Source: Mycobacteroides chelonae CCUG 47445 (GTDB lineage: Bacteria > Actinomycetota > Actinomycetes > Mycobacteriales > Mycobacteriaceae). From it: a DNA stretch of 64,000 bases. The notes under the pieces are model-generated. The model made no database searches. It was not told the origin of the DNA and was given only the letters and a program-made list of their open reading frames with translations. Location: NCBI RefSeq assembly GCF_001632805.1, contig NZ_CP007220.1, forward strand, positions 4,774,001 through 4,838,000. The letters are read 5' to 3'. The position numbers and the translations under genes were made by a program. Shown here piece by piece: positions 22,353 through 64,000 of this stretch (its first letter is position 1; every line of letters starts with the position of its first letter).

Positions 22353-23246
22353 ATGTCCGAATCAGCCTTCGACCCGGCACCGATCAGACAGATCTGGCAG
22401 TCGCTGGGTATCCCCGGGATCGTGGACGTGCACACCCACTTCATGCCCAAATCCGTCATGGACAAGGTGTGGGGCTACTTCGACTCGGTGGGGCCGCTGG
22501 TCGGGCGTCCCTGGCCGATCACCTATCGCGCCGAGGAATCCCAGCGCGTCGCGACGCTGCGAGAGTTCGGGGTGCTGCGGTTCACCTCACTGGTCTATCC
22601 GCATAAACCGCAGATGGCGGCCTGGTTGAACCAGTGGGCCACGCAGTTCGCGGCGCAGACCCCCGATTGCATCCACACCGCCACCTTCTTTCCCGAACCC
22701 GAAGCCGCCGAGTACGTATCGGAGGCGATCGAGGCGGGCGCCGGCGTCTTCAAGGTCCACATCCAGGTCGGGGCCTTCTCCCCCACCGATCCCCTGCTCA
22801 CCCCGGTATGGGGCCTCATCGAGGACGCCGGGATTCCGGTCGTCATCCATTGCGGGTCCGGTCCGGCACCGGGCGAATTCACCGGGCCGGAGCGAATCCG
22901 GGTGCTGCTGAAGCAATTCCCACAACTACGCCTGATCATCGCCCATATGGGCATGCCCGAGTACGGCGAATTCCTCGACATCTGCATGCACTACGACGAG
23001 GTGCGGCTCGACACCACCATGGCCTTCACCGCGTTCTCCAACGAAAAGGCGCCCTTCCCGGAGGCGGACTATCCGAGGCTGATGGACCTGCGCCACAAAA
23101 TCCTCTTCGGGAGCGATTTCCCGAACATCCCCTACGGATACGCTGAGGCGATCAACGCCCTGCAAGCCGTCCCCGGAGCGGATGACGCCTGGGTACGCGG
23201 AGCGCTGTACGACAACGCGGCGGCGTTGTTCGGCGTCAACGGCTAG
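22353..23246 (+). CDS. Amidohydrolase-2 family metal-dependent hydrolase
   Basis: A 297-residue TIM-barrel hydrolase. The N-terminal HxH metal motif is VDVHTHFMP, further ligands are in VVIHCGSG and IIAHMGMPEYGE, and the catalytic Asp is in FGSDFPNIPYG. The ATG at 22353 is chosen because the family fold starts there; an upstream frame runs into the copper-box region. Members hydrolyse or decarboxylate small aromatic or cyclic compounds. It is divergent from copZ and convergent with the acyl-AMP ligase: the two genes share the bases CTAG as opposite stop codons. It has no evident part in copper handling or peptide synthesis. Confidence 0.9.
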   Translation: MSESAFDPAPIRQIWQSLGIPGIVDVHTHFMPKSVMDKVWGYFDSVGPLVGRPWPITYRAEESQRVATLREFGVLRFTSLVYPHKPQMAAWLNQWATQFAAQTPDCIHTATFFPEPEAAEYVSEAIEAGAGVFKVHIQVGAFSPTDPLLTPVWGLIEDAGIPVVIHCGSGPAPGEFTGPERIRVLLKQFPQLRLIIAHMGMPEYGEFLDICMHYDEVRLDTTMAFTAFSNEKAPFPEADYPRLMDLRHKILFGSDFPNIPYGYAEAINALQAVPGADDAWVRGALYDNAAALFGVNG

Positions 23247-24904
23247 ATCAACAGTCCGTCTCGGTAGGCCTGACGAACCTTGAGCCGCTGGCGTTTTCCG
23301 CTTGTGGTCCGGGGAATCGTTCGAGCCGGCACCAGCACCACCTCGTCGAGGGAGAAGCCGAACGCGGCACGGACACCGGCGGCTATTCGGGTGCGAAGCT
23401 CCCCGTACTCATCTGCCGCCACCCGGGTTCCCACCACGGCCACCACCGACTCCCGGGCACGTTGCTCGTCGGGCAGGGAGAAGACGACGGAGACACCTCC
23501 GGCGCCGGAGATGCTGTCGATCTCTCGCTCGATGTCGTAGGGCGGGAAGTTACGCCCGCGCACAATGAGCATCTCCTTGCGCCGCCCCACCACAAACAGT
23601 TCGTCATCGGCGAGGAACCCTCGGTCTCCGGTGTCGTGCCATCCATCCTCGGGCGCCGCGACCCCACCGTAGGGGGTCAGGTAGCCGGACATCACCGATG
23701 GTCCGCTCACCTGGATATCGCCCACGGCACCATCGGGTAGCGGATCGCCAGCAGGTCCGGTGATCCGCAACAGCAGGCCGTCGACCACTTGTCCGCAGGA
23801 CACGACTGGCTGCTCATCCTCCGGATTCTTCCGGGCGTGCACTCTTCCGAAGGTCTTCGCACCCAATGGATACGGTTGCAGTGCAACGGTTGTCGCGAGC
23901 ACAGTTTCGGCCATGCCGTAACACGGCACCAGTGCATCTGCCCGCATCCCCAGCGGCGCGAGTTGTTCGGTGACATCACACATCACCGAGTACGGAATGG
24001 GCTCGGCGCCGACGTAGGCATGCCGCAGTCGAGACAGGTCCACGTCCGAAAGTGCGCCGGCGCGCTTGATCGCGTCAGACACGGCCCGGTAGGCAAAGGG
24101 TGGGCCCGCCGTGTGCGTCGAACCGTGATGAGTCATGTGCCGCACCCATGACATCGGATCCCGCAGAAACCCCATCGGGGTCATCACACCGACCCGCAGA
24201 CCGTAGAGGAGACCGGCCAGTACCTGGATGAAACCCATATCGTGGTACAGCGGCAGCCAACTGAACACCCGGTCGCGTCCGCGCAATACCCTTGTGCCGT
24301 AGGCGATTGCGCCGGCATTGTGCACCACATTGCCGTGTGTCAACAGCACTGCCTTGGGCGCCGACGTGGAGCCCGAGGTGAGCTGAATATGGTGGATGTC
24401 GCCGGGATTTGCGTGCGAACGCAGCGGCCAGTCGATCGGATCGGCATCGGTCAGCTCGCCGTACATCACGACGATCCGGTGCGTGATCGCCACCGCGACG
24501 CGCGGTTGCGCAATGACCATGGCCGGGTTCAGCACCTCCAGCGCCGCACACAGGTGTGCCACACCCGCCGATTCCGGCCGCGAGGGTGTGGGCGGCGGGG
24601 CGATCGCGCACGGTACCGCGCCCAACAACAGCACCGCCAGCAGCGTGCTCAGGTACTCCTCATCACTGGCGGCGACCATGGCCACGCGGTCGCCCCGGCG
24701 CAGGCCCCGCGCAGCGAGCGCCGCGGCGCGAATCCGGATGGTACGGACCAGGCCCGCTCCCGAGAGTGCGTGCAGGTGGCTACGTGAATCGTAGAAGTCG
24801 ATTCGCTCCAGATCCGAGCGCAACAGGACCGTGTAGTCGATAGCGCCGGTGGCCATGGCCGGAGCGTTCGCCTTCACATGCTGGCGAATCGCGGTGACAC
24901 TCAT
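23243..24904 (-). CDS. Fatty acyl-AMP ligase (FAAL, FadD-like)
   Basis: A 553-residue ANL-superfamily adenylating enzyme. Motifs: the ATP loop LTSGSTSAPKAV (about residues 175-186), SWLPLYHDMGFI, CYGMAE, DTGDRGFL and the C-terminal lysine region TTSGKRQRLK. The SWLPLYHDMG segment is typical of FAALs, which activate fatty acids as acyl-AMP and load an acyl carrier protein rather than CoA. Its ATG overlaps the acyl carrier protein stop by 4 bp. With that protein and the starter condensation domain of the large NRPS it would supply the N-terminal fatty acyl chain of a lipopeptide. Confidence 0.9.
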   Translation of the reverse strand: MSVTAIRQHVKANAPAMATGAIDYTVLLRSDLERIDFYDSRSHLHALSGAGLVRTIRIRAAALAARGLRRGDRVAMVAASDEEYLSTLLAVLLLGAVPCAIAPPPTPSRPESAGVAHLCAALEVLNPAMVIAQPRVAVAITHRIVVMYGELTDADPIDWPLRSHANPGDIHHIQLTSGSTSAPKAVLLTHGNVVHNAGAIAYGTRVLRGRDRVFSWLPLYHDMGFIQVLAGLLYGLRVGVMTPMGFLRDPMSWVRHMTHHGSTHTAGPPFAYRAVSDAIKRAGALSDVDLSRLRHAYVGAEPIPYSVMCDVTEQLAPLGMRADALVPCYGMAETVLATTVALQPYPLGAKTFGRVHARKNPEDEQPVVSCGQVVDGLLLRITGPAGDPLPDGAVGDIQVSGPSVMSGYLTPYGGVAAPEDGWHDTGDRGFLADDELFVVGRRKEMLIVRGRNFPPYDIEREIDSISGAGGVSVVFSLPDEQRARESVVAVVGTRVAADEYGELRTRIAAGVRAAFGFSLDEVVLVPARTIPRTTSGKRQRLKVRQAYRDGLLI

Positions 24905-25215
24905 CCTTGTTCGCGTCGTTTCGCCTTATCGCGGAGACGCTGCCGGATGAACGCTCCGATATCGCCCACCACCACGAACGCAAACGCCTCCTCTTCCGGA
25001 ATGAAGACGGAGAACCTGTCCTCCAGGTCGTTCATCAGCGCCATCAGCACCACGGAGTCGACGGGAAGGCTCAGTAGCGGAGTGTCAGGTCCGACCGCGT
25101 CGAGGTCGAGCTGTGCCAGATCCTCCGGGGGCAGCAGCTTGGTGAGCGCGTCTCGTAAGGCCTCGGCAATGTCGAGATCGATGGGAAGTTCAGGGACGGA
25201 CTGTCTTTCGGTCAT
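24901..25215 (-). CDS. Acyl carrier protein
   Basis: A 104-residue carrier protein. LPVDSVVLMALMNDLEDRF contains Ser54, the expected phosphopantetheine site, in the DSVxL pattern of ACPs that work with FAALs. It overlaps the ABC ATPase stop (ATGA) and the FAAL start (ATGA), so all three are translationally coupled. Its likely job is to carry the FAAL-activated fatty acid to the starter condensation domain of the NRPS encoded at 33314-57709. It is comparable in context to the ACP encoded beside fadD10 and nrp in M. tuberculosis. Confidence 0.88.
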   Translation of the reverse strand: MTERQSVPELPIDLDIAEALRDALTKLLPPEDLAQLDLDAVGPDTPLLSLPVDSVVLMALMNDLEDRFSVFIPEEEAFAFVVVGDIGAFIRQRLRDKAKRREQG

Positions 25216-63774: not shown

Positions 63775-63891
63775 TCACATCTCCCCTACAAGACTCTGGG
63801 TCCAGAGAACGCGCACTGCTTGCCATGGGCTCGTGACCGGGCGCCACAGAACAGCTTTCAAAGGAACCCCAGACGACGAACCTACCGCGTA

Positions 63892-64000
63892 GTGTCTTTG
63901 TACGTGTGGGGATCGGTGCTAGCGCTCGTGGTATTGGTCGCCCTGAACCCGATACGACTGGGCATCACCCTCCTCGTGATCTCGCGGCCGCAGCCTGTGC
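63892..64000 (+). CDS. Gap-like (GPL addressing protein family) membrane protein, partial
   Basis: The N-terminus of a plus-strand protein that runs off the right edge. The frame reads SLYVWGSVLALVVLVALNPIR then LGITLLVISRPQPV. The pattern W-x-V-L...LNPxRLGxxLLxISRPxP is characteristic of Gap-family proteins, small integral membrane proteins required for surface delivery of glycopeptidolipids. GTG 63892 or GTG 63904 could be the start; neither has a clear ribosome binding site. It is divergent from the methyltransferase gene across 117 bp. Confidence 0.7.
   Translation, partial: MSLYVWGSVLALVVLVALNPIRLGITLLVISRPQPV

What the first reader, a model, noticed from the sequence alone, without database searches (positions are those of the whole stretch)
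23243..64000. Candidate undescribed glycolipopeptide system: at least eight modules with GPL-type tailoring and export genes
One region holds a fatty acyl-AMP ligase, an acyl carrier protein, a starter-C NRPS with eight adenylation domains in two proteins, MbtH, a P450, two GPL-type glycosyltransferases, a methyltransferase and a Gap-like protein; an MmpS-MmpL pair lies 5 kb further left. Established: classical mycobacterial GPLs use Mps1/Mps2 with four modules (D-Phe, D-allo-Thr, D-Ala, L-alaninol), Gtf enzymes, MmpS4/MmpL4 and Gap. Inference: this locus makes a related but longer molecule, with at least eight residues, three of them predicted Thr and up to four D-residues, built on a FAAL-loaded fatty acid.
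Basis: partly seen in the sequence, partly recalled or inferred. Interest (0 to 1): 0.92.

Follow-up and report, generated by a model that had tools for sequence, protein, structure and literature searches.

The report
Truncated lipooctapeptide cluster in M. chelonae
This is the Mycobacterium chelonae copy of a recently described gene cluster for a sugar-decorated lipid-peptide (GL8P), but in this genome its last part is cut away at a junction with DNA of other ancestry, which also makes an unrelated fatty-acid enzyme look as if it belonged to the cluster.

Summary
Genome length (5,029,817 bp) equals that of M. chelonae type strain CCUG 47445. The two NRPS genes carry eight A domains and epimerases at positions 1, 3, 6 and 8: the GL8P plan published for M. 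abscessus MAB_4689c-4705c (PMC11978893, 2025). A classical mps1/mps2 locus lies about 575 kb away.

NRPS2 is truncated. At window 26260-26263 its terminal condensation domain is joined to the 3' part of an ABC permease. In 8 of 8 fetched close relatives with NRPS2, 15-21 kb lies between these points and NRPS2 ends C-T. The block left of the junction has another ancestry (76-81% against 93-97% in the flanks; AU test p 7e-5). FAAL and ACP therefore belong to another cassette.

New here: the same synthetase occurs in a second group of larger mycobacterial genomes; an ICMT-like methyltransferase gene flanks NRPS2 in 16 of 16 intact loci; and the published GL8P formulas exceed the structure described in the text by exactly CH2. 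I predict a C-terminal methyl ester made by that enzyme, as in MAP L5P. The window locus lacks this gene and the C-T end.

The parts
33314..57709 (-). NRPS1 (8131 aa): Cstart-A1-T-E-C-A2-T-C-A3-T-E-C-A4-T-C-A5-T-C-A6-T-E-C
   Evidence: 94% DNA identity to G136 over window 26260-56041
26264..33314 (-). NRPS2, remaining NRPS part: A7-T-C-A8-T-E, then the first third of the terminal C domain
   Evidence: 95% protein identity to G136 over residues 1-1138
26260..26263 (.). junction: terminal C domain of NRPS2 joined to the 3' part of an FtsX/MacB-type ABC permease, 4-bp overlap of the two homologous stretches
25907..26263 (-). remnant (119 aa) of the ABC permease, in a frame other than NRPS2; not part of GL8P
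   Evidence: 368-aa MacB/FtsX homologue in G136
25212..25898 (-). ABC transporter ATPase, in frame with the NRPS2 ORF; belongs to the FAAL cassette
   Evidence: PF00005
24901..25215 (-). acyl carrier protein of the FAAL cassette; not part of GL8P
   Evidence: PF00550
23243..24904 (-). FAAL-type acyl-AMP ligase of the FAAL cassette; not part of GL8P
53462..54517 (-). epimerization domain of module 1
45764..46816 (-). epimerization domain of module 3
34922..35947 (-). epimerization domain of module 6
27186..28139 (-). epimerization domain of module 8
57727..58053 (-). MbtH-like protein (ORF; domain at residues 36-86)
   Evidence: PF03621
58458..59900 (+). cytochrome P450
   Evidence: PF00067
59932..61191 (-). 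GPL-type glycosyltransferase 1
61199..62677 (-). GPL-type glycosyltransferase 2 (Pfam match begins at residue 69, so the true start is probably internal)
62794..63774 (-). methyltransferase (Methyltransf_23)
63547..64000 (+). ORF with the start of a Gap-like SfLAP protein (coding start about 63.89 kb by eye; continues to 64698)
14906..18159 (+). MmpS-MmpL pair of the divergent block; probably not the GL8P exporter

Best explanation
This is the GL8P-type (glycosylated lipooctapeptide) locus of the M. chelonae type strain, the counterpart of M. abscessus MAB_4689c-4705c. In intact loci a starter-C NRPS pair builds N-acyl-D-Thr-L-Ala-D-Phe-L-Ile-L-Tyr-D-Leu-L-Thr-D-Thr (residues as published for M. 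abscessus). The chain ends on a C-T didomain without thioesterase, is rhamnosylated and methylated, and is probably exported by an MmpS-MmpL pair with Gap-like help. I infer that the ICMT-like protein coded next to NRPS2 methylates the C-terminal carboxylate. In this genome a block of about 36 kb with other ancestry stands where relatives have resident DNA. Its right edge cuts NRPS2 inside the terminal C domain; the T domain and the ICMT-like gene are missing, and an unrelated FAAL-ACP-ABC cassette comes to lie alongside. Shown: architecture, junction, divergent ancestry, missing genes. Inferred: import as the cause, the chemistry of release and capping, and that this strain makes no or altered GL8P.
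For: Two tandem NRPSs, E at 1/3/6/8 and a GPL locus about 575 kb away match the published locus. Gene order MbtH, P450, NRPS1, NRPS2 matches MAB_4692c, 4693, 4691c, 4690c, which fall together with MAB_4689c in one mutant. Binding-pocket codes, at the positions that could be read, are equal or differ by one or two residues across the 16 intact loci. Eight of 8 close relatives with NRPS2 end C-T and lie 15-21 kb from the FAAL cassette. Identity to G136 is 93-97% on both sides of the block and 76-81% or unalignable within it. NRPS2 groups the window with G136 (100/100), while the FAAL alignment rejects that pairing (p 7e-5). The resident segment was not found elsewhere in the genome. NRPS2 is lacking in 4 of 12 FAAL-bearing genomes, and 17 genomes with NRPS2 are not among the 23 of 396 with FAAL.
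Against: No product was measured. No M. abscessus sequence was identified among the genomes searched, so the match to MAB_4689c-4705c rests on architecture, gene order and papers. The paper's Fig. 1 legend annotates a Te domain at the end; none of the 16 intact loci checked has one. The assembly was Illumina contigs scaffolded with PacBio reads and gap-filled, and NRPS genes are repetitive. The divergent block does not by itself exclude that unassembled DNA lies at the junction. One search gave an empty answer without a positive control. One search found no protein with this junction in the protein database, but it did not return the window's own protein either, so it is uninformative. The own genome keeps a distant ICMT-like paralogue (53.5%) that might substitute.
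Confidence: 0.8

Rival explanations
1. One reading: one intact cluster in which the FAAL and ACP load the fatty acid onto the starter-C domain of NRPS1 and the left MmpS-MmpL exports the product.
For: FAAL, ACP and NRPS2 are adjacent and on one strand with overlapping ends. FAAL-ACP-starter-C is a known lipopeptide start in the daptomycin group (PMC9113097, abstract start in search listing).
Against: The adjacency was seen only in this genome. In 8 of 8 close relatives with NRPS2 the cassette is 15-21 kb away; in G136 it has its own complete permease, class-V aminotransferase and LuxE genes. G345, G057, G205 and G269 have the FAAL but no NRPS match above 62%. Seventeen genomes with NRPS2 at 71% or more are not among those with FAAL at E 1e-150. 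The FAAL has another ancestry than the NRPS.
Confidence: 0.07
2. The junction is an assembly fault in a hybrid assembly: the real chromosome has an intact NRPS2 and the resident segment.
For: Illumina contigs with long-read scaffolding and gap filling; the break lies in a repeated domain type.
Against: The resident segment was not found in the rest of the genome (without positive control), so about 15 kb would have to be lost from the assembly, not just misplaced. The block beside it truly differs from G136 while both flanks match at 93-97%, and only one FAAL of this family is present.
Confidence: 0.17
3. The cut NRPS2 still works: the peptide leaves module 8 by hydrolysis or an external thioesterase, and the strain makes unmethylated GL8P.
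For: All eight A domains and four E domains are present in open frames. The terminal C domain keeps its HHxxxDG motif before the cut.
Against: The C-T end, with its HHxxxDG motif and T-domain serine, is kept in 16 of 16 intact loci, which speaks for a needed role.
Confidence: 0.3

Closest known systems
GL8P locus of M. abscessus (MAB_4689c-4705c; PMC11978893)
   Same: Two tandem NRPSs, eight A domains, E at 1, 3, 6 and 8, Thr-type codes at 1, 7 and 8, MbtH, P450, Gtfs, methyltransferases, MmpS-MmpL, about 575 kb (published: 600 kbp) from the GPL locus
   Different: NRPS2 is cut in its terminal C domain; the T domain and the ICMT-like neighbour (by position MAB_4689c, my inference) are missing; a FAAL-ACP-ABC cassette of other ancestry abuts it
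Classical GPL locus (mps1/mps2)
   Same: NRPS pair, GT28-type glycosyltransferases, methyltransferase, MmpL
   Different: Mps2 in this genome ends T-reductase (PF07993), fitting an amino-alcohol end; separate locus at 4.206-4.225 Mb; four modules by the literature (not counted here)
MAP lipopentapeptide L5P / PstA
   Same: Mycobacterial N-acyl NRPS lipopeptide; L5P carries a C-terminal methyl ester (PMC8103206, passage); MAB_4690c is said to share strong homology with pstA (PMC11978893, discussion)
   Different: Five residues, no sugar (recalled); its NRPS end and any ICMT-like neighbour were not examined here
Daptomycin-type FAAL/ACP/starter-C initiation
   Same: FAAL and ACP next to a starter-C NRPS in this window
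   Different: Linkage is not conserved; the FAAL block has another ancestry and is separable

Membership tests
GL8P cluster | two adjacent NRPS genes with eight A domains and epimerases at 1, 3, 6, 8 | tested here: met
GL8P cluster | A-domain specificities Thr-Ala-Phe-Ile-Tyr-Leu/Thr-Thr-Thr | tested here: inconclusive
   Thr-type codes at 1, 7, 8; the other codes are equal or nearly equal to those of the 16 intact relatives where read, but no M. abscessus sequence was compared and substrates of positions 2-6 were not assigned independently
GL8P cluster | neighbouring MbtH, glycosyltransferases, methyltransferases, MmpS-MmpL | tested here: met
   (MmpS-MmpL and one methyltransferase lie right of the window)
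GL8P cluster | distinct from and about 600 kb from a GPL locus | tested here: met
   mps1/mps2 at 4206502-4224605, NRPS2 ORF from 4799212: about 575 kb apart
GL8P cluster | complete NRPS2 end (C-T in all 16 intact loci checked) with adjacent ICMT-like gene | tested here: not met
   the paper's Te annotation could not be matched. The locus is therefore filed as a truncated derivative, not a complete member
GL8P cluster | product GL8P, m/z 1392 and 1750 | not testable with these tools
   needs mass spectrometry
Classical GPL (mps1/mps2) | four modules, reductive release to amino alcohol | tested here: not met
   eight A domains, no reductase
FAAL-initiated lipopeptide cluster | conserved linkage of FAAL and ACP with the NRPS | tested here: not met

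The most novel reading that the evidence does not exclude
Mycobacteria have a common way of ending lipopeptides: NRPSs without thioesterase or reductase that finish in a C-T didomain, followed by a membrane ICMT-like methyltransferase that caps the released C-terminal carboxylate as a methyl ester. GL8P carries this cap (explaining the extra CH2 in its published formulas), MAP L5P is another case, the cluster is spread well beyond the M. abscessus complex, and the M. chelonae type strain is a natural mutant that lost exactly the end domains and the capping gene.
Probability: 0.45. Interest if true: 0.66.

Novelty: new variant of a known kind. Interest (0 to 1): 0.5.

Why it matters
It corrects a plausible but wrong reading: the FAAL is a neighbour through a rearrangement, not the loader of GL8P. 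It suggests that the M. chelonae type strain may lack, or make an altered form of, a surface lipid that in M. abscessus is linked to virulence and to patient antibodies, which bears on using GL8P as a diagnostic marker. Finding the same synthetase in 8 of 8 checked larger mycobacterial genomes does not fit the published view that this product is confined to the M. abscessus complex and close kin. The link between the synthetase end and an ICMT-like gene gives a testable answer to how thioesterase-free mycobacterial lipopeptide synthetases finish their product.

Tried and rejected
Considered and rejected: (1) the cluster as undescribed (PMC11978893). (2) The glycosyltransferases and Gap as the edge of an mps1/mps2 locus right of the window: mps1/mps2 lie at 4.206-4.225 Mb. 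(3) The 2700-aa ORF as a functional NRPS-ABC fusion: the permease remnant is out of frame and none of the eight relatives has the fusion. (4) Move of the resident segment elsewhere in the genome: one part gave only matches of 65-80%, the other none (without positive control).

Led nowhere: three protein searches (searches listed 120 NRPSs each and none named Mycobacteroides; one search gave none below 1e-10, not even the window's own protein). Passages of the Rhodococcus and M. chelonae biofilm papers had nothing on this locus.

Weak points of my own sampling: the 40 stretches and the 39 usable ones were picked by hand from listings, not blindly, and several were picked after I had seen an ICMT-like match near an NRPS match. 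In one search this holds for at least six (G308, G342, G183, G369, G265, G198). Without those six the C-T ends with an ICMT-like gene nearby are 2 of 3, not 7 of 8. End types were judged by tail length alone; 36 of 39 stretches gave a row. Searches scored only three and two candidates per genome, so absence there is limited to that depth.

Slips: the NRPS2 tree held eight rows translated out of frame; one search replaces it. The T-domain pattern missed five of 16 terminal T domains; Pfam and the printed residues show all 16 with the serine.
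Full report
What is there. The window is G000:C1:4774001-4838000 of a complete 5,029,817-bp genome. That length is exactly the one reported for M. chelonae type strain CCUG 47445, CP007220 (PMC4901242, section 1 part 1). NRPS1 and NRPS2 together hold eight A domains and E domains after modules 1, 3, 6 and 8. The order is Cstart-A-T-E-C-A-T-C-A-T-E-C-A-T-C-A-T-C-A-T-E-C on NRPS1 and A-T-C-A-T-E-C(cut) on NRPS2. Pocket codes at modules 1, 7 and 8 are of the Thr type (code positions recalled from GrsA).

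It is the GL8P locus. PMC11978893 (abstract, sections 6, 7, 8 and 12, and passages) describes a second GPL-like locus, MAB_4689c-4705c, in M. abscessus. It has a hexamodular and a bimodular NRPS, epimerases at 1, 3, 6 and 8, and lies about 600 kb from the GPL locus. The product is an N-stearyl octapeptide T-A-F-I-Y(OMe)-L-T-T with one or two rhamnoses. In PMC12455991 (passages) MAB_4689c, 4690c, 4691c, 4692c (MbtH) and 4693 (P450) fall together in one mutant; the window has this gene order except for MAB_4689c. The window genome also has mps2 at 4206502-4214232, ending T-reductase, and mps1 at 4214229-4224605, with Gtfs and MmpL, about 575 kb away.

NRPS2 is cut. At 26260-26263 NRPS2 is joined to the 3' part of an FtsX/MacB-type permease. 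The terminal C domain matches only positions 2-161 of 456. Nine close relatives with the FAAL at 79% or more were fetched. In eight of the nine (all but G345) NRPS2 is 2710-2726 aa and ends C-T, and the two sides of the junction are 15-21 kb apart. G345 (the record labelled M. chelonae S00154) has the FAAL cassette but no such NRPS; its best matches are at 55-59% in mps-sized frames. Missing from the window, as read in G136, are an ICMT-like methyltransferase next to NRPS2, a TetR regulator and a second TetR-like ORF (by eye only), a further Gtf, an SDR, an alpha/beta hydrolase, a carboxyl transferase, a LuxE-type ligase and a class-V aminotransferase. They were not found elsewhere in the genome (only 65-80% matches; none, no positive control).

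The block to the left has another ancestry. Against G136, identity is 97% from -20.0 to -9.7 kb, 76-81% or unalignable from -9.6 to 26.26 kb, and 93-95% from 26.26 to 84 kb. In the NRPS2 tree the window pairs with G136 (100/100). In the FAAL alignment that pairing is rejected (p-AU 7e-5), and so is window+G136+G237+G216 (p 0.005). G136's FAAL groups with G237 and G216, as its NRPS2 does, so the odd one is the window's. FAAL and NRPS2 also part company in general. Of 396 genus genomes, 23 have this FAAL at E 1e-150 (three candidates scored per genome). Seventeen genomes outside the nine have an NRPS2 match of 71% or more in a frame of 2.69-3.15 kaa, or (G182, G240, G141) in a shorter frame that is probably cut by a contig end; none of them is among the 23. 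Two further genomes at 72% in much longer frames (G154, G169) and two at 70% (G185, G119) were left out of the 17; they are not among the 23 either (two candidates scored per genome). Of 12 FAAL-bearing genomes searched for NRPS2, 4 have no match above 62%.

Wider distribution. For eight of the 17 (G346, G166, G328, G299, G286, G279, G387, G344; 5.6-7.3 Mb) 40 kb around the NRPS pair was fetched. They have the same domain order where covered, and pocket codes that equal the window's or differ by one residue where they could be read, and they end C-T. They form a separate clade in the NRPS2 tree. This does not fit the paper's statement that the second-locus product is conserved only in the M. 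abscessus complex and a few close species, unless such genomes were not in its set of 42 strains; its Data S1 could not be read here.

The end of the molecule. All 16 intact loci keep HHxxxDG in the terminal C domain and the serine of the terminal T domain, have no A domain after it, and no thioesterase or reductase by Pfam. This differs from the Te named in the paper's Fig. 1 legend. All 16 have an ICMT-like gene (78-100% identity; PF04140/PF04191 in the three tested) beside the NRPS2 3' end, on the same strand in the eight close relatives and convergent in the other eight. ICMT-like matches of 72% or more occur in 29 of 396 genomes, among them all 25 with NRPS2 of this type (8 + 17). The family also occurs beside other NRPSs. 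Of 39 hand-picked ICMT-like loci, 27 have an NRPS 3' end within 2 kb, always the 3' end. Twelve have none, including the window genome's own 53.5% paralogue and one at a contig end. Ten of those NRPSs outside the GL8P type were put to Pfam, and 10 of 10 end C-T. In 36 NRPS ends picked mainly from the NRPS listing, an ICMT-like gene lay within 3 kb for 7 of 8 C-T ends, 6 of 16 thioesterase-size tails, 0 of 8 reductase-size tails and 2 of 4 others. That sample was not blind: without six stretches that I had already seen to hold both, the C-T figure is 2 of 3. So an ICMT-like neighbour is not confined to C-T ends, and the general rule is only suggested; the 25 of 25 for GL8P-type loci stands apart from this sample. 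The absence beside reductase-type ends (0 of 8) fits a carboxyl methyltransferase, which would have nothing to act on there.

The extra CH2. From the structure described in the text (three Thr, Ala, Phe, Ile, O-methyl-Tyr, Leu, N-stearyl, rhamnose, 2-O-methyl-rhamnose, hydroxylauroyl) the free acids are C70H114N8O18 and C89H148N8O24. The printed formulas are C71H116N8O18 and C90H150N8O24, each exactly CH2 more, and the computed sodium adducts with CH2 (1391.8300, 1750.0655) match the printed masses. The paper's own remainder (C30H58O3) implies that its drawn core already carries this CH2; I could not see the figure, and the passages I searched name no C-terminal ester. With the acyl chain given as C18 and the two free Thr side chains lost in fragmentation, the carboxyl end is the likeliest place (inference). 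MAP L5P has a C-terminal methyl ester (PMC8103206, passage). I therefore predict that MAB_4689c (by position) and its homologues cap the C-terminus. My searches of the held papers turned up no statement of this (listings; passages).

Verdict. A truncated GL8P-type locus, beside a FAAL cassette of other ancestry that is itself damaged (its permease is cut and its LuxE and aminotransferase genes are missing). The cluster as such is known; the truncation, the wider range and the C-T/ICMT ending are new here, the last one a hypothesis.

Noticed in passing
window 22290-26263: FAAL cassette (in G136: LuxE-type ligase, class-V aminotransferase, MacB/FtsX permease, ABC ATPase, ACP, FAAL, then an amidohydrolase gene) of unknown product; here it lacks the first two genes and two thirds of the permease.
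   Followed up: partly
window -9.6 kb to 26.26 kb (G000 4764.4-4800.3 kb): Divergent block of about 36 kb with a catabolic set (P450, FMO, SDRs, acyl-CoA dehydrogenase, MaoC, thiolase, MlaD; 1.4-13.8 kb), MmpS-MmpL and copper-type genes; left edge and any mobility genes not studied.
   Followed up: partly
window 18738-22237: Heavy-metal P-type ATPase, a protein without Pfam match and a small HMA-domain protein in a row, probably for copper.
   Followed up: no
G000:C1:2945999-2957998 (L111): Another NRPS ORF of about 4 kaa, with counterparts of similar length in G136, G357, G237 and G216; its 3' end lies outside the fetched stretch.
   Followed up: no
G290:C17, G357:C1:902-918 kb, G216:C4:225-247 kb: NRPS ORFs of about 10.37 kaa in three close relatives, at loci other than GL8P.
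   Followed up: no
L013 / G345: Record named Mycobacteroides chelonae S00154 (4.0 Mb) has no GL8P NRPS and only 81% FAAL identity to the type strain; perhaps not the same species.
   Followed up: partly
L197, L210, L211, L212, L215: Five NRPSs with thioesterase-size tails carry an ICMT-like gene at a nearly constant 1557-1562 bp from the 3' end.
   Followed up: no
window 64.8-73 kb (L093): Right flank: second SfLAP protein, a protein with a sub-threshold sulfotransferase match, a further methyltransferase and an MmpS-MmpL pair, the likelier GL8P exporter.
   Followed up: yes
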